Assembly: GCA_026710155.1 (NCBI GenBank)
Contig: JAPORQ010000031.1
Span: 1 to 61,967, forward strand
DNA: 61,967 nucleotides
From: Paracoccaceae bacterium
GTDB taxonomy: Bacteria; Pseudomonadota; Alphaproteobacteria; Rhodobacterales; Rhodobacteraceae
Direction: 5' to 3'
The number at the start of each line of letters is the position of its first letter. Within the stretch, counting starts at the first letter, position 1. A program made the translations under genes and the position numbers. A model generated the notes under the pieces. That model saw only the letters and a list, made by a program, of their open reading frames with translations, was not told where the DNA came from and did no database searches. Positions 3,813-30,383 of the stretch are shown piece after piece.

Positions 3813-5081
3813 TATCCTCTTCTTGTATTATCACTCTTCAATCTGGCAATCAGATATTCCATTCCCCTATTACCTTTGACCCGATTGCAGTTCCCACACA
3901 GTAATTGAAGATTGTCCAAATGATCGGTTCCCCCAACTTTCCGACCGATAATATGATCCACTTCCAGATTTCTCATTTCAAAATGGGTGGAACACCCATT
4001 GCAATATCCCTGCTGCTCTCCATAAAGTCTGGTTTTGTTTGCAGGTGAATTGTATTTCGGAAGTTTTCCCAAATCGGTTCTTTGTGGAATGTCTGTCCGG
4101 TGGATTCCATCATACAACATTCCCAGATTTTCCTTCATTCTCATCTGAACGAGATCGGCGGCTTTTTCACCAATGTCAATGCCAACCCATTGTCGTTGCA
4201 ATTCCTCGGCTGCCACACATGAGGTTGCACAACCGCAAAAGGGATCCAGTATCATGTCGCCTTCGTTTGAGCTGGCAGTTATAATCCTGCGTAGAAGGGT
4301 CAGGGGTTTTTGGGTTCTATATCCAGTTCGTTCCCGTGAACCTTGACCCAATTGAAGTCCTTTTTCAACCCACAAATTACCTATTGCCGATCCGGGGCTT
4401 TCATCAAGATATATTCGTTTTTCACCACCTTCGGTCTCGTATCCCTTTCCACGCCGTGCCATACGATAATTTCTCCCGTCTCTGTCGATGTGTCGGTATT
4501 CCTTGATGGCTTCTGGTGAAAGAGGTTCAAAAACGGTTTTGAAAAATGCCTGTTCGGACAACACGAAGAACAAAATCGTATCGTGCTGGGTTGTAAATTT
4601 GTGCTTGGCATTGTTCTTTCTTCCACTGTATTTTCGCCAAACAATCTCATTCCTGAAATTCCTGCGTCCAAATATTGCATCCATTACCAGCTTGAGGTAA
4701 TGGCTCATGGTCGGGTCACAATGTAGGTAGATGCCCCCCCCCATCGGGTTTTAAAAGCCTTTTCATCTCAAGTAACCTAACCGCCATGTAGATCAGGTAT
4801 GATTTGTCACTGTCGGTCATGGCAGCCTGTATAACCCGATTGAGTTGTGGGTGCTTTGCCTCGATCAAGTCCAGCCAGGCAATATCAATGTCTGTAAGAT
4901 TCCATGTATCCTTGAATTCAGCTCCTGCTGCCTTGCTTCCAATGGGAGCTGCATAGTTGGCATTTGTATTGAATGGAGGGTCAAGGTAGATCAGGTCAAC
5001 GGATTCGGAGTTCATGCCCCTCATAATATGAAGGTTGTCACCAGTCCATATCGTTTTGTTCTCCCAGTTCGGCTTTTGCAT
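3809..5081 (-). pseudogene. DNA methyltransferase fused to HNH endonuclease domain (IS passenger; frameshifted or phase-variable)
   Basis: Joined across one frameshift it would be a ~424-residue beta-type amino-DNA methyltransferase. DLIYLDPPFNTN is motif IV; MILDPFCGCATSCVAAEE near the C-terminal third is motif I. A zinc-containing HNH nuclease domain follows (YCNGCSTHF, LEVDHIIGRKVGG, LLCGNCNRVKGNRG). Reading breaks at a run of nine G on the minus strand (C's at 4734-4742). With nine the frame ends ...PDGGGHLPTL and stops. With eight it would continue PDGGGIYLHCDPT into the downstream half. The likely start is ATG 5081 (MQKPNWENKTIWTGDN), preceded by GGAAAT. The order methyltransferase then HNH suggests a self-contained modify/cut protein. 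Whether it is dead, a sequencing error or slip-strand phase-variable cannot be told here. Confidence 0.82.
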
Positions 5082-5129
5082 TGTAATTTCCATTTTTTGA
5101 AAATGGAAATGTATTATCTGATCAGCAAA

Positions 5130-5152
5130 ATTCAATCAGGTATATAATTCCC
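5130..5152 (-). repeat. Right terminal inverted repeat of the IS1595-family element
   Basis: On the + strand it starts ATTCAATCAGGTATATAATT and ends CCC; its reverse complement matches the left end. It is followed directly by the TATATTTT duplication. Confidence 0.85.
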
Positions 5153-5160
5153 TATATTTT
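5153..5160. repeat. Right 8-bp target-site duplication of the IS1595-family element
   Basis: TATATTTT, identical to 2768-2775. Confidence 0.88.
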
Positions 5161-5452
5161 CATAAACCGGATAACTCCAAGGATGATTTTAAACATGAAA
5201 TGCGATCAGGAAATTTACCTTGCTTCATTTCCTATGGCCCTAGTTTACATTGTAATGTATGAACAATATTTGGGACTGTTTTGCAATCGAACATGGAGTA
5301 CTTTCTTTACGGTATATTCAAATACTTTGGTAAGTACAAAGACTTGATTTGATGACTTGTTAAGGAAATTTACTTGTCTGCCATAATTGGTGAAGAGCCA
5401 AAAAGGAAATCATGCACCAAATGTTAGAATTGGGTTACAAAATCCAATCAAT
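5161..5452. other. Non-coding stretch between the IS element and hipA
   Basis: About 290 AT-rich bases. I see no open frame with a start and RBS, no tRNA and no clear terminator. The nonamer GAAATTTAC occurs twice (near 5211 and 5376) without obvious meaning. Confidence 0.5.
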
Positions 5453-6686
5453 TTACACATTCAGTTTTTTCTTTATCAACTTAATATTTACACCACTGAC
5501 GCCATATTGCTTTGCAAGCATGGGCCACTTGGATAGGCTAACTCTTGTGGATTTAATGATTTCTTGAGCCTGCGTTTTATTAATCTTTGCAACTTCTGCG
5601 AGTTTTAATAGATGCTTCTCATTTGGGTTAAGACCTTCTCCCATGACCATTGTGCTTTGCTCACCACCTAGACCAGAGGAGTATGTTATGTCATAAGCAG
5701 GTGATAGTTTCCACAGTTCCTCAAGATTCATCAGGAAACTAAAGTTCTTTGAATGATCATCCCGGTTATATGCAAGTACATTAAACACAGCCAGCTGGTA
5801 CATTTTTTTTATTTCGCGTATATCACGAGTCAATTTACACGTTAGTGCTATAAGATCCTCATAATCAAGCATGGGTGTACGAAAATCTGAGTGTAATAAA
5901 CCACAGGCTGTATGCATATGGCATCGTTTCGTGCCATCCCGATCAAAGCGCTTAGTAGCAAAGTAACCAGCACCTTTTTGTGCAGGAAAAAGATGTACAT
6001 CTGGCATTGCAATGCCAGCTCCCTTGGCCATCAGAGCATACACATATTCAATCGCTCCTGCGTCTTGACCATCTTGAGTGTTTGGAAATTTAACAATCCA
6101 TGGTGCAAAACCTTCAGGTAAATCATGAAGGCCATGAATAATATTGTCCTTAATTATCATTAACGCCTATCAACGCCTTAGGTCTTGCACCGGCAGAAGA
6201 ACCATTTAGAGCAATTAACTCCACAAGAACATCATCTGATGCCCCAACAAGAACTTCTTGTGTCTGCCTTGCAAGGGTGTCCAGGGAAATATTATCTTGC
6301 ATGTCATTTTGACTGTAATCAGGTTCAAACACTAGTGCACCGAGTGCATTCGGTCCAACATTTGCCAACCGATCAAGTGGGGTTATATCTGCCGGCATCA
6401 CATTATGGGAGCGTACAAAACGATCAAAGATCAAACGCCCCCAACCATCTGGCAGGCTATCATTAAATACACCTGGCAATCCTTCGAATAGGGAATTATC
6501 AAAACTCTGTAATCCAGGTTTCAGTGGCAGGTAAATTGGTGATAATTCTATGCCGCTTGCGATAAATCTACTGTCATATTTAAAATAAATGATACGCTTA
6601 TGCAATGCCAAGCGCCCAACTGGCATTGTCTCTTCACCAAAATTCAAAGTGATTATAACTTCCTTGGTGGGGAAAAGTTGTTTCAA
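5453..6686 (-). pseudogene. hipA: HipA-family kinase, frameshifted
   Basis: HipA kinases phosphorylate a cellular target (glutamyl-tRNA synthetase in the E. coli example) and are neutralised by HipB. The N-terminal half (6150-6686) has the HipA N-domain, FNDSLPDGWGRLIFDRF, and the nucleotide-loop motif SSAGARPKALIG. The C-terminal half (5453-6160) has the catalytic NRDDHSKNFSF and the metal-binding DITYS. The halves lie in different frames: one extra T in the TTAATTA run at 6150-6156 turns a probable NDNKDNIIHG into a stop. The second half has its own ATG (6160) overlapping that stop by 11 bp. Split HipA homologues exist (HipS/HipT), but there the break falls earlier, so frameshift inactivation is more likely than a natural split. 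The ATG at 6686 overlaps the hipB stop (ATGA). Confidence 0.82.
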
Positions 6687-7140: not shown

Positions 7141-10125
7141 CTAGCTATCAGTTTTTGGTACTTGTGAAATAGCTTGATCCACAAAATTTTCGTAATTACT
7201 GGCCCTTAAATAACGAGCTTCCTCGCCCAATGCTTTGAAGTGTTCTTCACTACATTGGATTTTAGCCTCCTCTATATCTCGTAACATATCTCTATAGATT
7301 GTACCTTTACTCTCGACTACGAAGTACAATTTCTCTTGACCATCAAGTTTGAACAAAACTGCCCAATCAGGGTTATATGACCCAAGTGGGGTATCATTCT
7401 TGAACCACGCAGGTAATTTTACGTAAACTTTGATCTCTTCGTTTTTCTCGAAGGATTGCGCAAAGTCAGATTCAATATTTGAGTCATATACAACATGATC
7501 ATAGGCTGACTTTTGGGTTTTAATCATATTCTTGTTCAAGTATCCAACCAACTCTTCACTTTCAAAAAGTTCCTGTGCATAATAATGATCATCACCTATT
7601 TTTTGATATTTGATGCCATCAACTATAAAGCTACGCATCTCCCGTTTGATTAATTCTTTCACTTCATCAATAAACTTCTGGGGATTATTCTTGAAATCAT
7701 TCAGACGTCCAGATTTAATTAGGATATCAAGTATCGACTTTCTCTTGAGGTTTGTTTCGTTTTGTAGATAGCTTAGAATATCCGGTATCGGATAATCCCG
7801 CACGTCATAAATATGTGTGGATTGGTGGCTCTCGGTAGCATGCACCCCGCTTCTTTTGATTTCGGTTTGTGCACGAATGTAATTGAACTTCGTTTTACCA
7901 ACAATCAGGTCGTTTTTAATGCTCTCAGCACATTTGTCGATCAGTTTTTCTGGATTGAAATCTACGTTATAGATTGTCTTGAATTTAATGCGATCCCAAA
8001 GTTCCTTAAATTCGGGGCCATCAAATACGGCCTTGTTGAGACACACCTTTCGTTTATCATCGTTATTCTTGATATTTAGGCCACCAGCCACTTTCTTTAG
8101 AGTTGTCCTTATCGCTTCTCGTTGTTCTTCAAATTGTTTGGGAAGCTTCAGATCATTTTCTTGAAGTGCTATTTTCAACTCATCCCTTACCATTCCGTAC
8201 TGGTCAATGTAATCGTTTTTCAGAAGGGAATTCCAAATGGTATCTGAAGCTTCTGCTCCAAGGAATGCTTGTTCTCCGTTTTCTTCTTCAATGACGATAT
8301 TGGCAAAACAATGATTTTCAACAATACCAAATTTTATTCCTTCTTCCTTCTCGATTTCGTTCTGTAAACCTTCAACAAAGTCTTCGTATGATTCATTGGC
8401 CATGACAGTCAGTGTATTGACATCAAACCCTGGAACCCGCTCCCCTTCTTGATTAACTGATATGCGTAGACCGCGACCGATCTCCTGGCGCTTCTTGATG
8501 GTTGAACTTGTTTCATTCAGCGTACAGATTTGGAAAACATTCGGATTATCCCATCCTTCCTTCAAGGTAGAGTGGGTGAAGATAAATTTCAGTTTTGAAT
8601 CAAAATTAAGAAGTTTCTCTTTATCCTTCATTATAAGGCTATAGGTGTCCTCATCCGCCGCTGTTGTCCCTCTGGTATCCTTTAGAATACCTTTATTATC
8701 CTGTGAAAAATAACCATCGTGAACAATACCTGGAAGGCTATCTGTGTCTATTTCAGCAAGGAGGTCATTATATTTCGGCTTTATTATTGCTTTCGCATAC
8801 TCTTCTTCAAAGATAAGGGCATATTTGCCTTTTAGATCCGGTGCTTCATAATCGCGGTAATTTGCAACCCTATCAATGAAGAAGAGACTGAGAACCTTTA
8901 TACCCTTTGGTGTGAGTTTGAGTTCCTTTTCCAAATGTTCTTCAATGGTTTTGCGGATTTGCAGGCGCTTATACTCATCTACATCCACATCACCAATCGT
9001 CTGGTGGAGTTTTACTATGTCTTCCTTGCTCTGGAAATCAATATACTCCTTTCCTTCTTCGCAATAGATATCATTGATGATATAACCTTCATAAATACTT
9101 CGCTTGGTGACATCCTCAAAAAGATCTGTACCCTGCTTAACCCAAAAGGTCTTTCTTTTTGTACCTGACTCGTGTTTTACATCGACTTCAACACGGGCAC
9201 GGTGCCCTTTTTTATTATCAACTGCAAGAAGCTTGATGAAAGCCTTGTTATGACCATCTCTTACCTGAATGGAGGCTACTTCTATTTGCTTGACCAGCTT
9301 TTGTTCATAGGCATCGATGGAATCCAGCTTATACAACATATTGTGCTTGTCAACATGAGTAGCTGAATATCGAAACGTACACAGCGGATTAAGGGATTTT
9401 ATTGCTTCGGCCGATTTGACCGTGGTGTCTACACTTTGCGGTTCATCAATAATCACAATCGGATTAATTGAATTGATGAAATCAATTGGCACCCCTTGCA
9501 TTTTATCATTCCAGCGGTGGATAATGTTGGCTTTGGACTCATTGGTTGGATCAGTAAAACTCTTTCGGAAGGCATCAATATTGATCACCATGATTTGCAG
9601 ATAGTCATTGGTTGCAAAACTACGGACTTGTTCAAGCCTTGATGAATCGTATTGGAAATAATCATACGGGGTATTGTCGTATTGTTCCTTGAGGTGGCTC
9701 TCTGTCATCTGCAAGGATTTCAAAACACCTTCCTTAATCGCAATGCTCGGTACAACAATTATGAATTTGGTGAAGCCGTATTTCTTGTTCATCTCAAGGA
9801 TGGAACGCAGATAGACATATGTCTTGCCGGTTCCGGTCTCCATCTCGATAGTGAAATCACGTCCCTGCAGCTCTTTGGTTTGTTTCAAGCCATTGCTGAG
9901 TTGAATCTTTTGGATATTTTGAAGTATTTCGTCATCAATTAATTGCAGCCGGTTGCCAATACCATTATCAACTTGGCTAGGAATATTATCATCAAACAAA
10001 TCAATCGGGCTAATTCTTGGCATGGAAAAGATGGTCTTGTTCAGTTCTTGACCCTCAAACACGCCAACAGCGGATTCCCATGCTCGGCGTTGGTGATCCT
10101 GGTTGGGATCAAATTTGATCTTCAT
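7141..10125 (-). CDS. res: Type III restriction enzyme, Res subunit (helicase-nuclease)
   Basis: A 994-residue Res subunit. It translocates or switches on ATP hydrolysis and cuts DNA when complexed with Mod. Helicase motifs in order: METGTGKTYVYLRSILEM (Walker A), VIIDEPQSV (DExx box, with the DEPQ form usual for Res), FRYSATHVDK (motif III), FTHSTLKEGWDNPNVFQI and KKRQEIGRGLRI (motifs V-VI). Near the C-terminus YNPDWAVLFKLDG and LYFVVESKGT give the PD-(D/E)xK nuclease site. Length is normal and no lesion is visible. It follows mod by 11 bp on the same strand, the standard mod-res order, so the system looks intact. Confidence 0.93.
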   Translation of the reverse strand: MKIKFDPNQDHQRRAWESAVGVFEGQELNKTIFSMPRISPIDLFDDNIPSQVDNGIGNRLQLIDDEILQNIQKIQLSNGLKQTKELQGRDFTIEMETGTGKTYVYLRSILEMNKKYGFTKFIIVVPSIAIKEGVLKSLQMTESHLKEQYDNTPYDYFQYDSSRLEQVRSFATNDYLQIMVINIDAFRKSFTDPTNESKANIIHRWNDKMQGVPIDFINSINPIVIIDEPQSVDTTVKSAEAIKSLNPLCTFRYSATHVDKHNMLYKLDSIDAYEQKLVKQIEVASIQVRDGHNKAFIKLLAVDNKKGHRARVEVDVKHESGTKRKTFWVKQGTDLFEDVTKRSIYEGYIINDIYCEEGKEYIDFQSKEDIVKLHQTIGDVDVDEYKRLQIRKTIEEHLEKELKLTPKGIKVLSLFFIDRVANYRDYEAPDLKGKYALIFEEEYAKAIIKPKYNDLLAEIDTDSLPGIVHDGYFSQDNKGILKDTRGTTAADEDTYSLIMKDKEKLLNFDSKLKFIFTHSTLKEGWDNPNVFQICTLNETSSTIKKRQEIGRGLRISVNQEGERVPGFDVNTLTVMANESYEDFVEGLQNEIEKEEGIKFGIVENHCFANIVIEEENGEQAFLGAEASDTIWNSLLKNDYIDQYGMVRDELKIALQENDLKLPKQFEEQREAIRTTLKKVAGGLNIKNNDDKRKVCLNKAVFDGPEFKELWDRIKFKTIYNVDFNPEKLIDKCAESIKNDLIVGKTKFNYIRAQTEIKRSGVHATESHQSTHIYDVRDYPIPDILSYLQNETNLKRKSILDILIKSGRLNDFKNNPQKFIDEVKELIKREMRSFIVDGIKYQKIGDDHYYAQELFESEELVGYLNKNMIKTQKSAYDHVVYDSNIESDFAQSFEKNEEIKVYVKLPAWFKNDTPLGSYNPDWAVLFKLDGQEKLYFVVESKGTIYRDMLRDIEEAKIQCSEEHFKALGEEARYLRASNYENFVDQAISQVPKTDS

Positions 10126-10136
10126 CTGAGCGACTC

Positions 10137-12014
10137 TTAAAAACTCTTGATATCATCAATACCGTAACGCTTGAGCGTTTGCAGTGCATTGGTTTTAACG
10201 ACATCATCTCTGAAACAATCATCCTTGAACACAACCCGCATGATTTCGGGTTCTAGTTCCTCTTTCAATGCACCAATGCCATTCACTACATCCATGGAAA
10301 TGTCTTCTTCCAAACACACCACCAAGGCCCCCAAACCGATTGAGTAAACGGTCTTTCCTTTAATGGTAAGGGTTTCAATCTGTACTGTTAGCTTAAGGCC
10401 TTGTTTCAGAAGAAGTTCAAATAGAATATCTTCGTTGGTGCGATCTTGCTTAATATTTTCAATGGCATTTAATAGATCTTGCTCAAGCGTATTAAAATCA
10501 GCTTCCCAGCGTTTAATGTTAGAACTATCAAGTTTGAAGACTTTAAAACCAAGATCGCCTTTATAATCAGGATTTTCTAATTGAATTTTTTTTGCAGCTC
10601 TACGAAGACGCTCTTTGGAAATTTCACTTATTTTCAAAGGAATTTTTTTCTGTTTACAAAATTCTATAGCCTGTAAATTGTCCTGATCATTTTCATCAAT
10701 ATTTTCTGGTAATTGAACTAACAGTAATTTTCTAATTGCACCTTTATTTACATTAAGTTGATAAACAGAATGTCCCGTTGTTGAGCTCCCAGAAAAGAAA
10801 TCTAGTACTATCCCTTTATTTGTATGGTCACCCAGTTCTATAAAGCGAGATATCAAATCAATTGGTTTGGGGTTAGAGAAAACAGACTTTCCTTCAAATA
10901 AATCCTTTACAGATTGCGTTCCACTAGTAGTTGTTCCCAAATCATCCCACCAAGTCTTTGAGACCTTTCCCCTGTTCTCTGCCTCTGATAAATAACGCTT
11001 TCTCTGTGGACCGCCATCTCCAGTTAAACCAAAGATAATACGCCCTTCTTCCATAAGTTCTTTGAAACGGCTATGATCATTTTTCCAACTACAACCATCA
11101 TTGGGGAAATAAACTTTACCATTGTTAGGGTTAATAATTTCATATTGCTGATTTGGTCTCCATCCCCCTACTTGAAAAGGATCAGCCTTCCATGGACCTT
11201 TAGGGTCATTATCGGGGTTTGAAAAACCATCACCATCTTCTGGCAACCTGAAATGGTGTCTATTCACTTTGAAATAATCTCTCCGACGAGCATAGACCAG
11301 ATTATAGGTATGTCCAACTGAAATAATTGCTGTATTAGTTACTGATTTGGTACTATTCCACATAACACAACCTATGAAGTTATCCTCACCAAAAATCTCA
11401 TCAGATATTTTTTTTAAGTTTTCTGACTCGTTATCATCTATTGAAATGATAATTACACCATCATCACGAAGCAGATTTCTTGCCAATTTTAGACGTGGAT
11501 ACATCATATTCAGCCAATTGGTATGGTAACGTCCGGCAGTACTGGAATTCGTTCCCATTTTTTTACCTTTGCTATCGAGCTGACCTGTCATTTCGAGATA
11601 GTGGTTTATGCCATCTTTGAAGTTATCTTTGTATACAAAATCATTACCGGTATTGTATGGTGGATCGATATAGATCATTTTCACTTGGCGGTGATAGGAT
11701 TTTTGTAGCAGTTTGAGAACTTCAAGATTTTCACCTTCGATAAATAGGTTCTGCGTGGTATCCCAATAAACGCTTTCTTCCTTGCAAGGTCTTAATGTTC
11801 CTAGACTCGGTGTTTGTGCTAAACGACCAGCCTTGCGTTTGCCATACCATTTAAAATTATAATGATCCTCATCTTCAACCAAATATTCCCCAAGCAGTTC
11901 TTTGAGTTGTTCAAAATTTATTTTTCCTTCTGAAAAAACTTCTGGAAACAGCTCTTTCAACTTTCCAATATTATGTTCCACAATATTCATGCCTTCGCCG
12001 TCAAGTTTTTCCAT
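10137..12014 (-). CDS. mod: Type III DNA methyltransferase, Mod subunit
   Basis: A beta-class N6-adenine methyltransferase of about 625 residues. DPPYNTGNDFVYKDNF is motif IV and GIVLDFFSGSSTTGHSV is motif I, with the target-recognition region between them. Mod recognises the site, methylates one strand and guides Res. I chose ATG 12014 (MEKLDGEGMN) because GAAGGAACAAGT sits directly upstream; an in-frame ATG at 12035 is the alternative. No long simple repeat is seen in the coding region, so it does not look like a phase-variable mod. It forms an operon with res, 11 bp downstream. Confidence 0.92.
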   Translation of the reverse strand: MEKLDGEGMNIVEHNIGKLKELFPEVFSEGKINFEQLKELLGEYLVEDEDHYNFKWYGKRKAGRLAQTPSLGTLRPCKEESVYWDTTQNLFIEGENLEVLKLLQKSYHRQVKMIYIDPPYNTGNDFVYKDNFKDGINHYLEMTGQLDSKGKKMGTNSSTAGRYHTNWLNMMYPRLKLARNLLRDDGVIIISIDDNESENLKKISDEIFGEDNFIGCVMWNSTKSVTNTAIISVGHTYNLVYARRRDYFKVNRHHFRLPEDGDGFSNPDNDPKGPWKADPFQVGGWRPNQQYEIINPNNGKVYFPNDGCSWKNDHSRFKELMEEGRIIFGLTGDGGPQRKRYLSEAENRGKVSKTWWDDLGTTTSGTQSVKDLFEGKSVFSNPKPIDLISRFIELGDHTNKGIVLDFFSGSSTTGHSVYQLNVNKGAIRKLLLVQLPENIDENDQDNLQAIEFCKQKKIPLKISEISKERLRRAAKKIQLENPDYKGDLGFKVFKLDSSNIKRWEADFNTLEQDLLNAIENIKQDRTNEDILFELLLKQGLKLTVQIETLTIKGKTVYSIGLGALVVCLEEDISMDVVNGIGALKEELEPEIMRVVFKDDCFRDDVVKTNALQTLKRYGIDDIKSF

Positions 12015-12035
12015 ACTTGTTCCTTCTTCCTTCAT

Positions 12036-17336: not shown

Positions 17337-18266
17337 GTGAAGAAAAAATATTTAAATTCCATGAAAGAAGCATTTTACAAAATTAATTTTAAATATGATT
17401 TTCTTGCAAAAAAAGGATTGGAATTTCAAGATTGGTTTTGCGAATTAGCCAAGTATGTTTGGAGTGATGATTTCGAACGGATTCGTCCCAATGGAAAACA
17501 AGGGGATTGGAAATGTGATGGAAGGCAAATTAGTACTGGAACTATATTTCAGGCTTATGCTCCTGAAAGACCTAGGATTACCAATACGATAAATAAAATC
17601 AACTCAGATTTTGAAGGAGCAAAGAAACATTGGCCTGATTTTATGAAAAAATGGATCTTTGTTTATAATGACCCAAATGGTTTGCCTCCAGAAGTTGCAC
17701 GAACACTTGATAAATTAAGAAATGATAACCCTTGCATAAGTATTTCTTCTTGGACCAAAGAAGATTTATTCACAAATTTGTATTCAAGGTTAAATCATGA
17801 AAGTAAGGAAATGATTTTTGGACCAGTTCCAGAAGAAGAAACATTTAAAAGCATGACATTGGAAGATTTGGAACCAGTTATTGATAGTTTAATGACAGCT
17901 GATCTAGACCCAATACAAGAACTTCCACCCCCTCCATCTCACCTAAAATTGGAAAAAAACAATCTATCTGAAGATGCTTCTAACCTTCTACTTCTTGGAC
18001 GGAGTCGAGTTAGGTTAGTAGAAATATTATTTCAAAAATCAGGACCCGTCGAAATGGGGGAAAAAATTGCTGAATCATTTAGAAATCGATACTGTGAGTT
18101 AAATGCCTATAACCTATCAGCTGATGAAATTTTCATGTATCTACAAAAATTTGCCCATTTTTTTGAAAAGAAAAGCCCAAATCATCAGGCTGCTGTAATG
18201 GCAGTTTTGGCTTACTTGTTTGACAATTGTGATATCTTTGAAGATCCAGAACTTGATGAAGAATGA
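17337..18266 (+). CDS. ABC-3C system effector: REase-like N-domain with C-terminal ABC-3C domain
   Basis: A ~309-residue protein (GTG 17337, or ATG 17361 for 301). Residues ~27-80 read LEFQDWFCELAKYVW, then RIRPNGKQGDWKCDG and TIFQAYAPERP. That matches restriction-endonuclease-like effectors in which GDxxxDG and the (F)QxYAPE strand form the active-site sheet. A proline-rich linker (QELPPPPSH) leads to a C-terminal helical domain that I read as the partner-binding part. The next two genes overlap in series (4 bp each), giving effector, middle component, ABC ATPase: the published plan of ABC three-component conflict systems. The effector would cut nucleic acid when the ATPase senses a threat; that role is inference from the family. 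Confidence 0.75.
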   Translation: MKKKYLNSMKEAFYKINFKYDFLAKKGLEFQDWFCELAKYVWSDDFERIRPNGKQGDWKCDGRQISTGTIFQAYAPERPRITNTINKINSDFEGAKKHWPDFMKKWIFVYNDPNGLPPEVARTLDKLRNDNPCISISSWTKEDLFTNLYSRLNHESKEMIFGPVPEEETFKSMTLEDLEPVIDSLMTADLDPIQELPPPPSHLKLEKNNLSEDASNLLLLGRSRVRLVEILFQKSGPVEMGEKIAESFRNRYCELNAYNLSADEIFMYLQKFAHFFEKKSPNHQAAVMAVLAYLFDNCDIFEDPELDEE

Positions 18267-18511
18267 TTTTACCTACCAAACATATAAGGTTAGATCGGTC
18301 ACTCATTGGTTTGGGGGGTGAAATTCTTGGTTTGTTAACCAGACCTTTAACAATTGCTGGGTTGTGGGATGAAATCAGAAGAAGCCGCTCCACAGATAAA
18401 AAATTATCTCCAGTGAGTTATTCCTGGTTTATACTTTGTCTGGATTTCCTATTTATAATAGGTGCCATCAGGTTGACAGAAAACCAATTGATAGTTCGAG
18501 CTTCATTATGA
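18263..18511 (+). CDS. ABC-3C system middle component, MC6-type
   Basis: An 82-residue protein beginning MILPTKHIRLDRSLIGLGGE, then LLTRPLTIAGLWDEIR, FILCLDFLFIIGAIRL and a short tail. This pattern fits the small middle component 6 of ABC-3C systems, which is thought to bridge effector and ATPase. It overlaps the effector stop by 4 bp and its own stop overlaps the ATPase ATG (ATGA at 18508-18511), so the three proteins are translationally coupled and probably made in fixed ratio. The hydrophobic LCLDFLFIIGAI stretch is a domain core rather than a convincing membrane helix. Confidence 0.78.
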   Translation: MILPTKHIRLDRSLIGLGGEILGLLTRPLTIAGLWDEIRRSRSTDKKLSPVSYSWFILCLDFLFIIGAIRLTENQLIVRASL

Positions 18512-20268
18512 TTAGAACTATTGAGAGTGACCTGAAATCATTCAAGACAATTAACTTTCTTCCCGGTCTAAATATTCTCCTTGCTCAGAAAAGTCCAAAT
18601 GCAACCAAATTGCAAACCCGAAATGGTGCTGGAAAAACAAGTCTTCTAGAATTGGTTCATTTCCTTTTTGGCGCTAGATCAACTCCCAAGAGCATATTTC
18701 GAAAACCAGAATTAAAGAACTGTAAATTTAGCATGGCTTTTGAACTGAATGGGGAAAATATGGTAGTCTCCAGGGTTGGAAGTACTAATCAAAAAATTTC
18801 GCTCAAAGGCAACACCCAAAACTGGCCAATTGTACCTCAAACTAATCCCCCAAAAGGCGAAGTAGAAATTTCTAATGAAGATTGGAAGAAAGTACTAGGC
18901 CATTTTTTGTTCAAATTAAAATTCGAAACTGATGCGGACCAAGATTTCACCCCTACTTTCCGGTCTCTATTTCCCTACTTTGCTCGCAGAATCAAGGATG
19001 GTGCTTTCCAGAAGCCCACCAAATTTTTTAATCAGCAACAAACTTGGAACGAGCAGGTGGCAATTTCCTATCTATTAGATTTAGATTGGAATATCGCTAC
19101 AGATTTCCAAAAACTCAAAGTTGAAATTAAGGATACAAGGGACCTTAAAAGTATTGGGGCTAGGGGTTCGACTGCTTATAAAATTGGAAAGCCGGCAGAG
19201 ATAAGGTCACAAATTGCAGTTAAAACACATGATCTACAACAGATCAAGTCAAATTTTGATTCATTTAAAATTGTTAATGAATATCGGGAACTTGAAAAAG
19301 AAGCTGACGAATTGACAGGGAAAATTGCTTTATTGGGTGAAGAAAATTTAATTGATAGGAGGTCAATCAGTGAGAATGAGAATTCACTTATTGAAGAAAC
19401 AGAACCAGGGGAGATGGATTTAGAAACTCTGTATAATGAAGCGGGTATTTTAATACCAGAACTGATAAATTTACGAATTAAAACGGCCAAGGAGTTTCAT
19501 AGAAAGATAATCTCAAACAGAAAAAACCATTTGGAAAAAGAAATTTCTTCAGCCAAAAATCGGATCAAGAAACGAGAAAAAGAAAAAACGAGGTTAGATC
19601 AACGTCGGTCTACGATAATGGATATTTTGAAAACTGGGGGCGCTCTGGACCAGTATTTAAAATTGCAAGAAGAGCTTGGTCGGTTAGAAGGTGATATTCA
19701 AACTCTCCAACGGGAATTAGAGGTGGCTCAAGAATTAAAAGAGCGTGAAACACAGCATAAAATTGACATGAATGAGCTTGAAAAAAAACTATCCCAAGAT
19801 ATCAATGAACGTTCACAAATAGTTCACAAGGCCATATGGACTTTCGAGGAATTATCCAAATCCTTATATGAAAGGGCTGGGCAATTGATAATTGATAGCG
19901 GGGAAAAAGGGCCCAAATTCGATGTAAAAATTGAAGGTCAAAGTAGTGAAGGAATAGCAAAAATGCAGATTTTCTGTTTTGATCATATGCTAATGGATTT
20001 AAACTCCCAGATGGATAGATCCACCGGTTTCTTAATTCATGATAGCCATTTGTTTGATGGAGTTGATGGCCGTCAGGTCGCCAAGGTATTGCAAATTGGT
20101 GCCCAGCGCGCTGAAGAAAAAAAATTCCAGTATATCGTAACCCTTAATTCGGATGCACTTCCAATAGATGAATTCCCCCCTGATTTTGATATACAGAAAT
20201 ATATCCTGGATGTGGAACTTACTGATAAAACAGAAACCGGCGGTCTTTTTGGATTGAGATTTGATTAA
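18508..20268 (+). CDS. ABC-3C system ATPase (DUF2326-type, SMC/Rad50-like)
   Basis: A 586-residue ATPase from ATG 18508. Walker A is RNGAGKTSLLELVHFLFG (about residues 38-55). A long charged helical region (about 240-450, rich in E/K/R/Q heptads such as KNRIKKREKEKTRLDQR) forms a coiled coil as in SMC/Rad50 proteins. The C-terminal lobe has GFLIHDSHLFDGVDGRQVA, with the D-S-H form of the Walker B/D-loop region seen in DUF2326 proteins. In ABC-3C systems it is the presumed sensor and switch. It is the last gene of the cassette; uvrC begins 340 bp downstream. Confidence 0.84.
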   Translation: MIRTIESDLKSFKTINFLPGLNILLAQKSPNATKLQTRNGAGKTSLLELVHFLFGARSTPKSIFRKPELKNCKFSMAFELNGENMVVSRVGSTNQKISLKGNTQNWPIVPQTNPPKGEVEISNEDWKKVLGHFLFKLKFETDADQDFTPTFRSLFPYFARRIKDGAFQKPTKFFNQQQTWNEQVAISYLLDLDWNIATDFQKLKVEIKDTRDLKSIGARGSTAYKIGKPAEIRSQIAVKTHDLQQIKSNFDSFKIVNEYRELEKEADELTGKIALLGEENLIDRRSISENENSLIEETEPGEMDLETLYNEAGILIPELINLRIKTAKEFHRKIISNRKNHLEKEISSAKNRIKKREKEKTRLDQRRSTIMDILKTGGALDQYLKLQEELGRLEGDIQTLQRELEVAQELKERETQHKIDMNELEKKLSQDINERSQIVHKAIWTFEELSKSLYERAGQLIIDSGEKGPKFDVKIEGQSSEGIAKMQIFCFDHMLMDLNSQMDRSTGFLIHDSHLFDGVDGRQVAKVLQIGAQRAEEKKFQYIVTLNSDALPIDEFPPDFDIQKYILDVELTDKTETGGLFGLRFD

Positions 20269-23916: not shown

Positions 23917-24395
23917 CCTTAATTAACAGGCACCTCTATTTTCAGCTGAATTCAAAATGGAACCGGGAATATTTTTAAACAACATGTTCATCACCAGTTA
24001 CATTTTAGGCGAAAGCTCCCAAAAATGTCCAAATCACTAACAAGATCCGCCCCCCCCCTCTTTACACATCACTACCTTCATTTTAACCATCCGGACACAC
24101 TTCTTCCTTTGATCAGAACTCAGCCTACTCCTCAAATGTACCAAACCTCTTCATGTTGCCACACAAATCCCACAAGCCTATCTAGGCATTCAATTCCTTC
24201 ATAGTCTTGTACGGGGCTGATCGGGATGGCATCAATTGTCTAACGGGTAAAATACCTGGATCCACGTCATGAATCTGGACGGGTATGTTCTTGTCACACA
24301 TGGCCAACTTGGCATATTCCATTATGGTGTAGTTGCAGGTTATGGCCAACCGGCAATCCAAAACAGTGATTCCAAGCAGGGAAATTAATGGGACT
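23917..24395. other. Intergenic region between moaE and the NACHT-nuclease gene
   Basis: About 480 bases with no supported gene. A run of nine C lies at 24050-24058. The minus-strand frame at 24182-24505 has no recognisable domain, and its 5' part lies in the dispersed repeat described next, so I do not call it. Confidence 0.45.
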
Positions 24396-24532
24396 TGTAA
24401 AGATAGGTTGACCACGAAACAATCCACCTGCCTGTCAAGACAATTCAAGCCGGTTCTGCGCCGGAACGGCATGTCCTCTTCACGGTCGGGAGGAAAATCG
24501 CACATCCGCCCACCTATCTTTATAAACCCCCA
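24396..24532 (+). repeat. Dispersed repeat, copy C (deleted mini-element relic)
   Basis: The first ~68 bases (TTGTAAAGATAGGTTGACC onward, including CAATCCACC and TGTCAAGA) align with 29940-30000 at roughly 75% by eye. The later part (GGTCGGGAGGAAAATCGCA) matches the reverse strand of 47397-47460. So both ends of the 47.4-kb mini-element seem present here with the middle missing. The right end, ATCTTTATAAACCCCC, is a poor match to the IS1595-type end. Confidence 0.5.
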
Positions 24533-24545
24533 TGATTAACGTATT

Positions 24546-27500
24546 TTAATTGATTGGGATGAAGTTGGTATGTACTTGTGAGAAATTTAACCACTGAACG
24601 GATAGTAATGTATGAAGAGTCATGATTTTAGGAAATCTTTTGGTTTGAAACATCAATAACGCATACTTTAATTTATTTTTTTGCTCTGAAGTGAGAGAAT
24701 TTACCAATTGTTGATGAAGTTCATCAGGACTTGATGGCCTTGTTCCTTTTGGAGATATTTGTGGCTTACAACTTTCAGATTCACCAAACCAGAAAACAAC
24801 ATAAATTCCATAACCCTCCGAATGAGGATCCCTTGTGTATTTAGCAATCAATTGCGATTGAATTGATGTCCAAAGATTCTTGTGACAACTTCTCTTTATT
24901 TCGATAGGCACATTAAACGGAGGAAAGGAGATGCGAATATCAGATCGCTTGTCGTTAGCGTAAGTACCTTCTGGTTGACCATCTATCCCTAGTGATTGAA
25001 GTTTGTAATTCAAATCAGATAATAAATTATCCCTACATAAATTCTCTTGCAAAGGTTTTTGGGGACTCTCATGACTATCTACAATCCAGTATTGCTTCCA
25101 ATCTGAAGAACTGGAATTACGAATATTGTTTCCAATTTCATTCAGATAATCGCAAGTCAGAGCTGTTAGGTCAGCTGGATTTGAAGGTTTTTTATTTTCT
25201 AAGGTTCCAAGGACATTTTCCAAACCGCAATATTTGAATTCAGCTTCACGACGGGTTACCATTTGTTGCTGGTGAGCATCTTCCAGATAGTTTTTCCAAC
25301 GTATTAGTTGTTTATCTGAAACCAGTTCCTTTAAGGCATGAGTTGCCTTCTCAGAAGAAATATTAGACAGTTGGTTAACATAATCTTTGACAATATCTGC
25401 AATGGTCATTTCTCTGGTTACGAATCCAGCTTTGCCAGAAACTAATTGATAGGGGAAAAATGAACTTCCAATATGTTTTACTATCAGTTTAATTACTTTA
25501 ACCTTTAGTCTGACCTCCAAGTCAGGTTGAAAGGCAAAGAATTCCTCTTCTAAAGTATTGGCAAAGTATCTTATTCTTCTCTCATTCCTTGGAATTTCAT
25601 CTATTACATTTTTAATATAAGTTTCTGGGTCTATGCATAAACCCAGTGCCAACCAGTAAATACGCTGCTCTATGTTCATGCTTTTGTGCTTGAGCTTTTT
25701 GCTAACTAATTCTGGTAGATTTTGAGAATTATGCTTTCTTGCAGCGAAAAAAAGATAACCGAGCTGAGTTAATTGATCAGCTTTGCACCTGACTGGAAAT
25801 CGTTTCAAAATTCTAAAAGCAGCATATTTCGCAACCTCTTCATACTCTTTGGAGAATGACAAATCATAGAGATGTTTAGTTCTACTCGTTTTTGATCTAA
25901 GAGTGGTTAAAGCATACTCCACCAATACATCAGCTACTATCATAGGATGATTTGACAATATCCAATTGTACCATGAGGGAGGGTATTGTTGCTCAAGATA
26001 TTTACTCAAGATGGAAGTAATATAAACAGCAACACACAAACGCAAATATTTGTCTTCCAATTTTGGTAGGAATGATTCACCTTCCTTTGATTTTTCTTCA
26101 AAACCAGCCAGTAATGGTGAGGATAGTGGATGTCGTTTATATTGCGAGTCAAGCTTTATAATATTGCTAACTGTGGGTAGATCATTTCGTAAGAGACTTT
26201 CAGAAAAGCTTAATATAACTGCATCAACCAAATCTTGGTCTCCGTTTAAGACATGCTCCAATCTTTCCTTTGGTGAATTGCCCTCAGGAACATCATCAAA
26301 TTCACCAAAATATACTTCAGCAAGATTGTGAAGCAAAACTGGACTAACTGTGTTATTGCGAATTTCTTTTTCATATGGTTTCACTTGGTCATGCCAATTA
26401 GGTCTTTGTTGCAAACCTCTATTAGTCCATCCAGAATTAGTTTCAGCTGATTGTTGGTTGTTTGATAATTCTTCTATTCTTGTGTTAAATATCTTATAGA
26501 GGTCACCCTTATTCTCTAAGGCATTGGATGTGGTTTTGAGGTTAAGGTTTTTATTGAAACTTCCTTCATAAAAGTGGTCAGCTAACTGTGTAATGTACCA
26601 TCTAGCAACTATCGGGTTTTCAGCTATTAAAGCTTGGTCAAGACACCAATCGCAAAAATCTGAGGGGGATACAAAATCAAACAATCTTCCCTTTTTTTCT
26701 AAATGCAAACAACGAAACAATTCGTCATAGCTTTCAGAATTTTTGGAGCACTCATTTACACTTTTACTTAATAATGATTTCCAAATATCTGGATGATTAC
26801 TTAACCACTGACGTATCTGTGAGCTCTCGGAAGAATTAAGTTTATGCGTTGAATTTGCCTTATACGTAACACCCAACCATTTGAACAATTTGTCCGGATC
26901 AATATCATTTTCTGATTTCTGTAGAAAATGATACAAAATTATTGAAGTGAAACACCTTGGACTATACCGGGTTATTCCTTTTGATCGTACTTCTAGAGGC
27001 AGTGCGTAGAATTTTTCTGTAAGTTGATCAAGTATTACGCTTAATTGTTTAGGGTTGGATTTGTTAGGTAATTCGTAACGCCAGAAATATTCGTATTGTT
27101 CCAATAAACTAAATGATTCCCTAGGAAGTTTAAGGTACTTAAGTATTTCCAGTTCCGATATTGCTGTAGGATAGAGAATCGACAAAACGCGACCAAGCAA
27201 ACTATCTTGAGGATCATTTATCTTACCTGAATATATTTCTTCACATATTTCCCTGAGTTTTATTATATTTCCTTCTTGATAATTCGCCAATACATCTACC
27301 GCCAATAACTTGATTCCTGTCCACCATCCATCATCACAAATTATCTTAACCAAGTTATCTGTAATACTAGGTAGAGGCTTTCCTTGTTGAAGTGCTTGTA
27401 GCAGGACTAAAAGGAAAGATTGCTCAGTATTCGAATATGAAATTGAATTGAGAATTTTACATATCTCACTTTCCATATCTGGAGTAATTAGATCACCGTA

Positions 27501-28610
27501 GAGTATTGTTCCCAAGGGATCTCTCGCAAAAATTTCAGTTCTGCTAAGTTTGTTATGTGATGCAAACCATGCTGAAAGGCCTCTGAGTTCTGAAACCACC
27601 CTATCATCATATCCAGTGATCAACGCAAGAATTCTTGCTGTTGGGAGCCCTTCATTTACAAGTTTTGACAAATATCTTCCTGCCAGAAACTCTGCAACCT
27701 GCCGATGTATTGGTATGTATTTTCCAGGAGATGGTGAACTGAACAACTTGCTTTGTAGACAAAATCTAATAGTATTTTGCTTTATTCCCGATATTTCATC
27801 CAATAAAATGTGATTATGATTTTCATTATCGGCGAAACCCTCAAGACCTTTTAGAAGAAGGATTGTACAAAGTTGACCACAATCATTTATCAAAGCATTG
27901 ATGTTACTGCGATTAGACCTTGTTGCTATAGAATGTTCCTCATTGTGTTCTTTTACTAGTGATTCACATGCCAATTCAAAAACTGCTTTTCTGTTTTCAG
28001 GCCAATTGTTTCCAGTTCCGACTGCCAAGGCCAGCATTTTTAGACTCTGTGGGTTTGTAAATAGCCCATCAAGACCATTGATTTTAGCTTGGGAAATAAA
28101 TTGATCTGGGTCTGGGATATTAAATTCATCACTTTTGAGAATTTGGCGAATATCTTCTAAATTGAGAGGATCAAGTTGAAGAATCTTTATATTATTGTCT
28201 TGGGATACCTTTTTGATATTTTCCTCGTCATTAGAACCTAACCAGTCTGCTTCACGGCAAGAAAGACGAAATTTTGGTTTGTTAAGTTTGTTGAGTTTAT
28301 TTCTGATTTTGTCCAATGTTGTGCGCCCATCACCTTCACCGGCCCTTTGTTCGTCAAGTCCATCGATAAATAGTGGGGTTTTGTTATATTCTTGATCAAG
28401 AGTGATAAAATCCCTTGCAGTAATAAAGTCCCCACCTTGTTGCTCAGCTTCTTGCTTGAAAATCGTTGTCTTTCCTGAACCTGGTGGTCCAAGCAATATA
28501 TAAGCGGAACAATCCTGCCATTTCTTAATAGAATGAGATTGGGATATTCGTAAATCATTAGAATTAGAAGATTTTATTTCATGACATGTTCGTTCAACGT
28601 ATTTGGTCAT
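24546..28610 (-). CDS. NACHT-like NTPase with helical repeats and C-terminal PD-(D/E)xK nuclease
   Basis: A 1354-residue protein that I cannot assign to a named defence family. Residues 41-48 are Walker A (GPPGSGKT); 79-87 are PLFIDGLDE, a NACHT/STAND-style Walker B; 115-123 read RLSCREADW, a sensor-1-like motif. Residues ~230-1200 are almost all helical and leucine-rich, as in HEAT/TPR-like sensor regions. The C-terminus has a nuclease site: D1224 (SDIRISF), E1237-x-K1239 (VPIEIKRS) and Q1253-x4-Y1258 (QLIAKY), a QxxxY-like motif as in RecB/Mrr-type enzymes. The upstream DUF4143 ATPase stop overlaps its ATG by 4 bp, so the two are coupled. The expected role is sensing followed by nucleic-acid cleavage; this is inference. 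No lesion is seen. Confidence 0.72.
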   Translation of the reverse strand: MTKYVERTCHEIKSSNSNDLRISQSHSIKKWQDCSAYILLGPPGSGKTTIFKQEAEQQGGDFITARDFITLDQEYNKTPLFIDGLDEQRAGEGDGRTTLDKIRNKLNKLNKPKFRLSCREADWLGSNDEENIKKVSQDNNIKILQLDPLNLEDIRQILKSDEFNIPDPDQFISQAKINGLDGLFTNPQSLKMLALAVGTGNNWPENRKAVFELACESLVKEHNEEHSIATRSNRSNINALINDCGQLCTILLLKGLEGFADNENHNHILLDEISGIKQNTIRFCLQSKLFSSPSPGKYIPIHRQVAEFLAGRYLSKLVNEGLPTARILALITGYDDRVVSELRGLSAWFASHNKLSRTEIFARDPLGTILYGDLITPDMESEICKILNSISYSNTEQSFLLVLLQALQQGKPLPSITDNLVKIICDDGWWTGIKLLAVDVLANYQEGNIIKLREICEEIYSGKINDPQDSLLGRVLSILYPTAISELEILKYLKLPRESFSLLEQYEYFWRYELPNKSNPKQLSVILDQLTEKFYALPLEVRSKGITRYSPRCFTSIILYHFLQKSENDIDPDKLFKWLGVTYKANSTHKLNSSESSQIRQWLSNHPDIWKSLLSKSVNECSKNSESYDELFRCLHLEKKGRLFDFVSPSDFCDWCLDQALIAENPIVARWYITQLADHFYEGSFNKNLNLKTTSNALENKGDLYKIFNTRIEELSNNQQSAETNSGWTNRGLQQRPNWHDQVKPYEKEIRNNTVSPVLLHNLAEVYFGEFDDVPEGNSPKERLEHVLNGDQDLVDAVILSFSESLLRNDLPTVSNIIKLDSQYKRHPLSSPLLAGFEEKSKEGESFLPKLEDKYLRLCVAVYITSILSKYLEQQYPPSWYNWILSNHPMIVADVLVEYALTTLRSKTSRTKHLYDLSFSKEYEEVAKYAAFRILKRFPVRCKADQLTQLGYLFFAARKHNSQNLPELVSKKLKHKSMNIEQRIYWLALGLCIDPETYIKNVIDEIPRNERRIRYFANTLEEEFFAFQPDLEVRLKVKVIKLIVKHIGSSFFPYQLVSGKAGFVTREMTIADIVKDYVNQLSNISSEKATHALKELVSDKQLIRWKNYLEDAHQQQMVTRREAEFKYCGLENVLGTLENKKPSNPADLTALTCDYLNEIGNNIRNSSSSDWKQYWIVDSHESPQKPLQENLCRDNLLSDLNYKLQSLGIDGQPEGTYANDKRSDIRISFPPFNVPIEIKRSCHKNLWTSIQSQLIAKYTRDPHSEGYGIYVVFWFGESESCKPQISPKGTRPSSPDELHQQLVNSLTSEQKNKLKYALLMFQTKRFPKIMTLHTLLSVQWLNFSQVHTNFIPIN

Positions 28611-29878
28611 TCAATCTCCAATAATTCATCTGCTGGAGTCATGAAAAATTCTGAAAATGGGATTCCTCCCTCACCAACGATGAAAGATTTAGTAGGTTGG
28701 AAACGCTCTTTAAATTTAAACAGACCGTCTAAATTTGGTTTACGAGCTCCACTTTTTACCTCTATGGCTATTAAATCTGGGCCTACTTTCAGTACAAAAT
28801 CCACCTCATGATATTTTTCACGCCAATAATACAATTTTGTATTGTATTTTCTTGTATTCAAAAGATGTGCCCCAACAGCACTTTCGACTAAGTGTCCCCA
28901 ATAGCTTCTATCAGATTTGGCTTGACTAAATGAATAATCTGAACTTGCGGAAATTAGAGCCGTGTTAAACACATTCAATTTTGGGCTTGATGACCTTATC
29001 CGATATGGTTTCAATGAATAAGTCTCAAGACCAGTAATGAGACCGGCCATTGACAAGAGTTCGAGGTACCTGGCTAAAGTTGTTGTATTGCCGGCATCAT
29101 CTAGTTGCCCAAGCATTTTATTATATGACAAAATTTGTCCTGAATAATCTGTACCTAAATGAAAAAGCTTTTTTAGTAGAGCCGGTTTGGCTACACGTTG
29201 TAATTTTAAGATATCTTTTTCTATATTTGGTTCGATTATTGCTTCGGTAATATATTCTCTCCATCTGTCCTGATCACTGACCAAATAAGCTGCTTCTGGA
29301 TATCCTCCAAAGTAAATGAATTGATCAAGGTCAAATTCGAAAGCCTCCAACATTTCAGAAAACGACCAGTGCATAAGCTGAATTGTTTCAAATCTACCTG
29401 CAAGGCTTTCGTTCAACCCCTTCTGCATTAGCAAGGGTGCTGAACCTAGCAATATTACGTGGAATTGTTGATTCTTCCTTCGGTCTGCATCCCAAAGCCC
29501 TTTGACAATTTCTGACCAATTCGGAATTTTCTGGATTTCATCAATGGCAAGAATAAAACCCTTTTCACTTTTATTAAATAATGTCCTAGCCTTCTCCCAT
29601 TCTCTTACTAACCACCTTCCGTCTCTTATGTTACTATCCAGTAAATAGAGATCCCTATTTTCCTGGGTTGGGTCAAAATCTGGATTCAAGGTATTTTCGA
29701 TTGAGTAGGGCTCATCTGTTGAAACAAACTTAAATGGTAAAGCCTGATTGTGTAAAGTTTGTTTCACTAGTGTTGTTTTTCCAACCTGCCGGGGTCCAAA
29801 AACATAAATTATACGTCTTGGCTTTTCATTCAAGCGACTTAACAAAGTTGAAAACTGAGGATGTGTAAATTCTACCAT
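28607..29878 (-). CDS. AAA ATPase with DUF4143 (PD-(D/E)xK-like) domain
   Basis: A 423-residue protein with Walker A GPRQVGKTT (28-36), Walker B FILAIDEIQKIPNW (D113, E114), the sensor strand VILLGSAPLLMQKG, FGGYPEA, and a C-terminal DUF4143 region. In the latter, EVDFVLKVG (358-366) and LIAIEVKSG (E373, K375) preserve a nuclease-like E/D...ExK site. Such ATPases are widespread and common in accessory DNA, but their function is unknown. The start follows GGAAGA. A perfect 36-bp palindrome covers the bases just upstream, and the stop overlaps the start of the NACHT-nuclease gene. It looks like the first gene of a two-gene unit. Confidence 0.85.
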   Translation of the reverse strand: MVEFTHPQFSTLLSRLNEKPRRIIYVFGPRQVGKTTLVKQTLHNQALPFKFVSTDEPYSIENTLNPDFDPTQENRDLYLLDSNIRDGRWLVREWEKARTLFNKSEKGFILAIDEIQKIPNWSEIVKGLWDADRRKNQQFHVILLGSAPLLMQKGLNESLAGRFETIQLMHWSFSEMLEAFEFDLDQFIYFGGYPEAAYLVSDQDRWREYITEAIIEPNIEKDILKLQRVAKPALLKKLFHLGTDYSGQILSYNKMLGQLDDAGNTTTLARYLELLSMAGLITGLETYSLKPYRIRSSSPKLNVFNTALISASSDYSFSQAKSDRSYWGHLVESAVGAHLLNTRKYNTKLYYWREKYHEVDFVLKVGPDLIAIEVKSGARKPNLDGLFKFKERFQPTKSFIVGEGGIPFSEFFMTPADELLEIE

Positions 29879-29886
29879 TATCTTCC

Positions 29887-29922
29887 ATTACTGTATTGAG
29901 TAATTTTACTCAATACAGTAAT
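29887..29922. promoter_or_regulatory. Perfect 36-bp palindrome upstream of the DUF4143 ATPase gene, candidate operator
   Basis: ATTACTGTATTGAGTAA and TTACTCAATACAGTAAT are exact inverted repeats of 17 bp around TT. The near edge is 8 bp from the ATG, so it overlaps the leader and RBS region. It could be a binding site for a dimeric regulator (possibly the ATPase itself) or an RNA hairpin hiding the RBS. No other copy is in the window. Confidence 0.65.
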
Positions 29923-29939
29923 TAAAATTGGAACCTATA

Positions 29940-30063
29940 AAGACGGTTGGCAACGAATCAATCCACCAGTTTGTCAAGATGGTATTCAAACTGCCTCTGC
30001 CTCAATTCGCTTTCCCTCGTCAGTTCCTCCTAGCAATAAAGTTTTCAGACAATTCCCACCTGT
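29940..30063 (+). repeat. Dispersed repeat, copy A
   Basis: It contains CAATCCACC, TTGTCAAGATGGTATTC and CTGCCTCTGCCTCAATTC. It aligns with the reverse strand of 47849-47956 over ~105 bp (about 80% by eye) and in its first half with 24396-24463. No IS1595-type terminus is visible beside it, so it looks like an old fragment. Confidence 0.6.
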
Positions 30064-30383
30064 TCCTCGATGGGGGAGGGAAAGGCATGAGAATGGTTTG
30101 TAGATCTCCAATGTAAACATGCGGAATCCCGGCATGGATTGAAAAGGAAACGGACAGCCGGACAGGACTTGTCAGGCTAAATCCACGAGACAGTTTTGCT
30201 CTGACATGTTTCACCTGCCTTGATGATATTATTCTTGTTGATGTCAATATAATTATTCTATCGTGTTTGAAAGAAAAATCGACTCGGATAGCCGTGAGGC
30301 CGTACCCCATTCAGCAAACAATAAATTGATGATCCTTTTTCAGGTGCTGCTGATATTGATTGGCCAATGTTGATCACGAATGA
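30064..30383. other. Intergenic region between repeat copy A and the peptide-binding protein gene
   Basis: About 320 bases. No gene, tRNA or clean terminator could be supported. It may be the rest of the repeat element or relic DNA at the edge of the inserted unit. Confidence 0.4.

What the first reader, a model, noticed from the sequence alone, without database searches (positions are those of the whole stretch)
24546..29922. Two-gene DUF4143 ATPase / NACHT-nuclease unit, a candidate undescribed defence system
Seen: an AAA-DUF4143 gene whose stop overlaps by 4 bp the start of a 1354-residue protein with an N-terminal NACHT-like NTPase (Walker A 41-48, FIDGLDE 81-87), ~1000 residues of helical repeat, and a C-terminal PD-(D/E)xK site (D1224, E1237, K1239, Q1253). 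Both proteins keep nuclease-like residues. Known: Avs/STAND defence proteins usually carry the nuclease at the N-terminus and the sensor at the C-terminus; here the order is reversed, and a coupled DUF4143 ATPase partner is not part of any described system I know. Inference: the ATPase regulates or restrains the nuclease, or both form one abortive-infection complex.
Basis: partly seen in the sequence, partly recalled or inferred. Interest (0 to 1): 0.78.

Follow-up and report, generated by a model that had tools for sequence, protein, structure and literature searches.

The report
Antiphage-type NACHT nuclease with ATPase partner
This is a two-gene unit in which a bacterial relative of animal NLR immune receptors, carrying a nuclease-type domain at its tail, is encoded together with a partner ATPase of unknown function; the pairing recurs in many bacterial groups and probably forms an immune device against viruses.

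Summary
In detail: a 423-aa AAA-DUF4143 gene (28607-29878, minus strand) overlaps by 4 bp a 1354-aa gene (24546-28610). The large protein has an NLR-type NACHT module, a helical superhelix and a C-terminal PD-(D/E)xK site. It is not family-less: it matches NCBIfam NF058535, 'NACHT domain-containing antiphage protein EruA', at 838 bits, under the 1000-bit cut-off. The DUF4143 protein matches PADLOC candidate PDC-S01.

The pairing is real within one branch. 63 of the 80 best relatives in the genome collection have a DUF4143 gene just upstream; 38 of 63 measurable pairs share the exact 4-bp overlap; on the tree pairing needs 3 changes against 23.4 for shuffled labels. Yet none of the 9 loci above NCBI's EruA cut-off in a Pseudomonadota sample has it, nor do 13 relatives from the window's own family. 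So this is a DUF4143-coupled branch of a named antiphage family: a new variant of a known kind.

Defence, complex formation and the partner's role are inferred. The window copy departs from relatives at its extreme C-terminus.

The parts
24546..28610 (-). EruA-like NACHT / helical-repeat / C-terminal PD-(D/E)xK protein, 1354 aa
   Evidence: open frame; NCBIfam NF058535 838 bits, E 1.5e-251
27651..28523 (-). NACHT NTPase with winged-helix region, about residues 30-320 (limits by eye from the model); Walker A at 28467-28490, FIDGLDE at 28350-28370
   Evidence: AlphaFold pLDDT 90.8; Foldseek NOD2 E 1.3e-9, NLRC4, NLRP3; motif conservation
25101..27593 (-). HEAT/ARM-like alpha-helical superhelix, about residues 340-1170 (putative sensor or scaffold)
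   Evidence: models; Foldseek hits are karyopherin/HEAT-type proteins
24651..25046 (-). C-terminal PD-(D/E)xK-type domain, about residues 1189-1320 (D1224, E1237, K1239, Q1253)
   Evidence: near-invariant residues; alpha-beta-beta-beta-alpha-beta order in the model
24546..24670 (-). tail that departs from relatives; their conserved ending lies in another frame here
   Evidence: three-frame comparison; a congener's remnant reads into the conserved ending
28607..29878 (-). AAA_14-DUF4143 ATPase, 423 aa, first gene of the unit; 4-bp overlap with the next gene
   Evidence: Pfam DUF4143 2.2e-27, AAA_14 1.4e-24; PADLOC PDLC04791 (PDC-S01) 542 bits
28754..28885 (-). stretch with the nuclease-like residues of the DUF4143 domain: E332, D360, E373, K375
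   Evidence: conserved in paired and unpaired DUF4143 proteins
23929..30366 (.). about 6.4-kb stretch that carries the unit and is absent at the same place in close congeners
   Evidence: window 23928 and 30366/30367 lie about 10 bp apart in L144, L145 and L146; L147 also lacks the unit there, with looser limits
24383..24537 (.). dispersed repeat with inverted ends beside the unit (MITE-like, by inference)
   Evidence: inverted repeat, 26-nt arms, 77% complementary; many further genomic matches of this stretch
29945..30134 (.). dispersed repeat upstream of the unit; 35 nt at 83% identity with 24406-24440
   Evidence: many further genomic matches

Best explanation
A two-gene NLR-like antiphage unit. 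The EruA-like protein is sensor and effector in one: its helical superhelix senses an infection cue, the NACHT module then binds or exchanges ATP and oligomerises, and this brings the C-terminal PD-(D/E)xK domains together to cut DNA (or RNA), stopping the phage or the cell. The DUF4143 ATPase is a dedicated enzymatic partner, probably made in step through translational coupling, that works with this complex as a second ATP-driven, nuclease-like arm (processing or delivering nucleic acid, or feeding the trigger). Shown here: architecture, intact catalytic residues in both proteins, conserved order and overlap, few changes of the paired state on the tree, joint inheritance. Inferred: defence, complex formation, cutting, coupling, and what the partner does.
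For: Near end-to-end match to NCBIfam antiphage EruA. NLR-type fold of residues 1-500. PD-(D/E)xK residues invariant or nearly so. DUF4143 just upstream on the same strand (within 240 bp) in 63 of 80 loci; of the 17 without it, 3 have under 300 bp of upstream sequence. Exact 4-bp overlap in 38 of 63 measurable pairs. Pairing needs 3 changes on the tree, shuffled mean 23.4. Distances of the two proteins correlate over 56 pairs (window and 55 loci with an EruA-like protein over 1200 aa), r 0.867, 0 of 2000 permutations as high. A DUF4143 search independent of EruA found 3 other paired genomes. The partner's Walker B residues (63 of 63) and nuclease-like residues (61-63 of 63) are kept, which speaks for an active enzyme. 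Some paired and some solo relatives pass NCBI's cut-off (paired L074, L094; solo L041, L122, L137).
Against: No experiment. The NCBIfam label could not be traced to a paper. The window protein scores below the family's curated cut-off. The neighbour sample shows no clear defence-island signal. The core EruA lineage, plasmid relatives and the 13 same-family relatives have no DUF4143 neighbour, so the partner is not needed for the basic activity. The 63 of 80 comes from the relatives most like the window (best 80 of 125) and overstates pairing in the family at large. The window copy's C-terminus departs from relatives. PD-(D/E)xK identity rests on motif and predicted fold: no nuclease family appears in Pfam scans of 61 members, only scattered weak matches in one or two members each, and the profile comparison with the DUF4143 nuclease-like domain is weak (12.8%).
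Confidence: 0.6

Rival explanations
1. The DUF4143 ATPase is a restraint (antitoxin-like): it holds the NACHT nuclease inactive until infection removes it.
For: It is the first gene and overlaps the nuclease gene, an order often seen in toxin-antitoxin pairs (recalled); joint inheritance.
Against: EruA relatives without a DUF4143 neighbour are common, so the nuclease needs no such restraint in general; the ATPase and nuclease-like residues of the partner are conserved, which a passive inhibitor would not need.
Confidence: 0.2
2. The DUF4143 protein is the trigger or adaptor: it senses phage nucleic acid or a phage protein and switches on the NACHT protein.
For: Conserved AAA_14 ATPase core; few changes of the paired state on the tree.
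Against: Solo EruA must sense without it; nothing here shows ligand binding.
Confidence: 0.15
3. The unit is a mobile or selfish cassette whose function is self-maintenance, not phage defence.
For: A discrete 6.4-kb stretch absent in close congeners, beside repeats dispersed in the genome; no clear defence-gene signal around relatives.
Against: Besides the two genes the stretch holds no transposase- or integrase-sized ORF; the one further ORF of 100 aa or more outside them (107 aa, 24182-24505) was not searched. Mobility is usual for defence cassettes (recalled); the family is named antiphage.
Confidence: 0.05

Closest known systems
EruA (NCBIfam NF058535, 'NACHT domain-containing antiphage protein EruA')
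   Same: Near full-length similarity, similar length, NACHT at the N-terminus and same C-terminal region
   Different: Window protein scores 838 bits, cut-off 1000; none of the 9 loci above cut-off in the sample has a DUF4143 gene within the 1.5 kb read on each side
HyoA (NCBIfam NF058534)
   Same: Partial similarity; best stretch is residues 872-1280
   Different: 143 bits against a cut-off of 1200
PADLOC candidate PDC-S01 (DUF4143 ATPase)
   Same: The partner matches model PDLC04791 at 542 bits
   Different: Its PDC-S name marks, as I recall, a one-gene candidate; here it is paired with a NACHT nuclease
bNACHT25/bNACHT32 (bacterial NACHT proteins)
   Same: NACHT plus a PD-(D/E)xK DNase (PMC12169576, passages seen)
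   Different: Their nuclease is N-terminal; here it is C-terminal, and there is a DUF4143 partner
Avs (AVAST) STAND proteins
   Same: STAND NTPase plus a long C-terminal part; Avs4 is a weak fold match (E 4e-4)
   Different: By Foldseek the NACHT region is nearer to animal NLRs (NOD2 E 1.3e-9); the effector is at the other end (Avs order recalled)

Membership tests
EruA (NF058535) | whole-protein score above the curated 1000-bit cut-off | tested here: not met
   838.4 bits; six paired relatives scanned range from 919.9 to 1023.4, two of them above 1000
EruA (NF058535) | end-to-end similarity to the profile | tested here: met
   two stretches, profile positions 18-363 and 401-1311 of 1318
EruA (NF058535) | antiphage activity | not testable with these tools
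   needs phage assays; no paper found
NACHT / NLR-type STAND NTPase | Walker A, hhhDGLDE Walker B, NLR-like fold | tested here: met
   Pfam NACHT in 12 of 62 members, best 4.5e-6, but not in the window protein itself
bacterial NACHT tripartite rule | effector at the N-terminus, sensor at the C-terminus | tested here: not met
   nuclease-type domain at residues about 1189-1320; rule from PMC12169576
PD-(D/E)xK nuclease | D...(D/E)xK on an alpha-beta-beta-beta-alpha-beta core | tested here: met
   D1224, E1237, K1239, Q1253; element order in the predicted model
PD-(D/E)xK nuclease | match to a known nuclease family or solved fold | tested here: inconclusive
   no nuclease family in Pfam; whole-model fold search dominated by helical repeats
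DUF4143 AAA_14 ATPase / PDC-S01 | AAA_14 plus DUF4143; PADLOC model | tested here: met

The most novel reading that the evidence does not exclude
The pair is a distinct two-enzyme immune system: an NLR-like NACHT protein with a C-terminal nuclease and an obligate DUF4143 ATPase-nuclease partner act as one machine, giving the large and uncharacterised DUF4143 ATPase family its first assigned role.
Probability: 0.45. Interest if true: 0.75.

Novelty: new variant of a known kind. Interest (0 to 1): 0.58.

Why it matters
DUF4143 ATPases can be numerous (7 places in this genome), and the only paper with the term DUF4143 in the library searched concerns Argonaute in Thermus (search listing). A fixed pairing with a protein of a named antiphage family makes the role of one DUF4143 clade directly testable, and it offers a natural comparison, paired against solo EruA, for how an NLR-like receptor with its nuclease at the 'wrong' end is controlled.

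Tried and rejected
Chance adjacency: rejected. No pairing at all: plasmid relatives in Pantoea, Bradyrhizobium and Vibrio are solo and so are relatives in the window's own family, which at first pointed against the pair; the genome scan showed that the window's own branch is paired. Phage-borne origin: one phage record with 27% of the query covered and no relative in viral contigs, by a search that reaches close relatives only. Defence-island test: 110 of 390 neighbour genes of 37 paired loci against 110 of 192 genes of 16 random regions of other genomes (selection; proteins over 1200 aa left out). At E <= 1e-20 the neighbours matched 46 PADLOC families and the controls 27, but the models overlap heavily, each table shows only 25 families with at most 2 or 3 proteins each, and I could not count matching proteins; the control held a type III restriction system. 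I call it inconclusive. Solved relatives by sequence: none convincing. E. coli genomes: no DNA match with three relatives as queries. Literature on EruA/HyoA as antiphage proteins or on the pair: nothing relevant in the listings (one search lists an unrelated E. coli regulator also called EruA); the library lacks most subscription journals.

Rows dropped before counts: four loci with a match but no single open frame (L044, L084, L109, L136) and L050, L054, L130, L133, L166 were left out of the EruA tree; L167 was labelled paired by hand from tblastn coordinates; L051, L075, L105 and L139 bore no label; L086b and L125 were too short for the DUF4143 tree.
Full report
What is there. Two genes on the minus strand, 28607-29878 (423 aa) then 24546-28610 (1354 aa), overlap by 4 bp. 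The first is an AAA_14-DUF4143 ATPase (Pfam) that matches PADLOC candidate family PDC-S01 (PDLC04791, 542 bits). The second has no PADLOC match and only sub-threshold Pfam NTPase matches, but NCBIfam gives NF058535, 'NACHT domain-containing antiphage protein EruA', at 838 bits, E 1.5e-251, below the 1000-bit cut-off.

Anatomy. Residues 1-500 model at mean pLDDT 90.8 and match NOD2 (E 1.3e-9), NLRC4 and NLRP3, with Avs4 far behind (E 4e-4). Residues 501-1354 model at 86.9, pTM 0.61, as helical hairpins followed by an alpha/beta domain; the fold search returns HEAT-type proteins. In the alpha/beta domain D1224, E1237 and Q1253 are identical in 56 of 56 paired and 29 of 29 other relatives that reach them, and K1239 in 55 of 56 and 29 of 29 (7 of 63 paired and 3 of 32 other rows have a gap). 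In the DUF4143 protein, among 63 pairs, D113, E114 and E332 are kept in 63, K34, E373 and K375 in 62, D360 in 61. A profile comparison lines up D..ExK of the two nuclease-like domains but is weak (12.8%).

The pair. A scan of the genome collection with an alignment of six sequences (A1) found 125 relatives and kept the best 80, so the set leans to those most like the window and to two conserved motifs. In 63 of 80 a DUF4143 gene 42-85% identical to the window's lies within 240 bp upstream on the same strand; of the other 17, three (L075, L105, L139) have under 300 bp of upstream sequence. For 63 pairs where both frames could be read (61 of these loci plus L165 and L166), the spacing is exactly -4 in 38. 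On a tree of 94 rows, 63 labelled paired, 27 solo and 4 unlabelled, the label needs 3 changes against a shuffled mean of 23.4 (FastTree, no bootstrap, letter make-up uneven). On the DUF4143 tree (80 rows, 65 paired) it needs 2, with the unpaired near relatives nested among the paired, so pairing may have been lost there (quick tree with long branches flagged). Protein distances correlate over 56 pairs, r 0.867. Titles of the paired loci name ten phyla; most are metagenome bins whose assignment I did not check, and the closest one, 'Ekhidna' L063 (DUF4143 85%, large protein 69% identical), may be misbinned (inference).

Limits of the pair. In 398 Pseudomonadota genomes, 35 have an EruA-family match and 9 exceed the cut-off; 29 loci were read with up to 1.5 kb on each side: DUF4143 in 3 (G489, G738, G685), each below the cut-off, and in none of the 9 above it. 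In 390 genomes of the window's order 17 had a match, and of 13 loci fetched from its own family (L045-L057) none has a DUF4143 neighbour, although two are fragments or have little upstream sequence. Conversely, of 10 genomes with a close DUF4143 match (E <= 1e-60), 4 have the EruA-like gene adjacent (window, G738, G685, G489) and 6 show none, of which two (L168, L170) have under 350 bp of downstream sequence. In the plasmid collection the nearest DUF4143 proteins (Thermus, Bacteroides, Collinsella; 41-46% identical) stand alone among ordinary genes. Paired and solo relatives both occur above NCBI's cut-off. So the pair marks one branch of the EruA family.

Setting. Three congeners have the empty site: window 23928 and 30366/30367 lie about 10 bp apart there, and a fourth (G005) also lacks the unit at that place, so about 6.4 kb came or went as one piece. 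Both flanks inside it carry stretches that match many other places in the genome. Congener G005 holds a decayed remnant of a related gene elsewhere. The window copy's last 30 or so residues depart from relatives, whose conserved ending lies in another frame; this may be an assembly error or early decay.

Mechanism and standing. Bacterial NACHT proteins are described with a C-terminal sensor and an N-terminal effector (PMC12169576, passages seen), and a 2026 discovery paper says that NACHT domains of other defence systems typically activate an N-terminal effector (PMC13092281, passages seen). Here the order is reversed. The conserved active sites of both proteins and the recurring pairing favour a two-enzyme machine; solo EruA shows that the partner is an addition, not a basic requirement. 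Defence itself rests on the NCBIfam name and on analogy. I found no paper on EruA/HyoA as antiphage proteins or on the pair (listings only).

Noticed in passing
17337-20268 (+): An ABC-three-component pair: CTD10 protein and DUF2326 ATPase, matching PADLOC candidate PDC-M68.
   Followed up: partly
7141-12035 (-): Looks like a type III restriction-modification pair (994 aa and 632 aa) by reading the ORFs; no family search run.
   Followed up: no
3809-6686 (-): Apparently broken genes read from the ORF list: a DNA methyltransferase in two pieces and a HipA-like kinase in two overlapping pieces; no family search run.
   Followed up: no
24383-24537 and 29945-30134: Dispersed repeats (MITE-like) flank the unit; several contigs of this genome begin at matches to them, so they probably break the assembly.
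   Followed up: partly
L044 6291-7238 (congener G005): Decayed remnant of a close EruA-like gene, 51% identical to the end of the window protein, with stops; its end reads into the conserved ending that the window copy lacks in frame.
   Followed up: yes
L058 and L059 (congeners G007, G004): HyoA-sized proteins (open frames of 1443 and 1455 aa) matched by NF058535 at E 1.6e-41 and 1.6e-31.
   Followed up: no
whole genome G000: Seven DUF4143 places; only the one in this window was examined for a NACHT neighbour.
   Followed up: no
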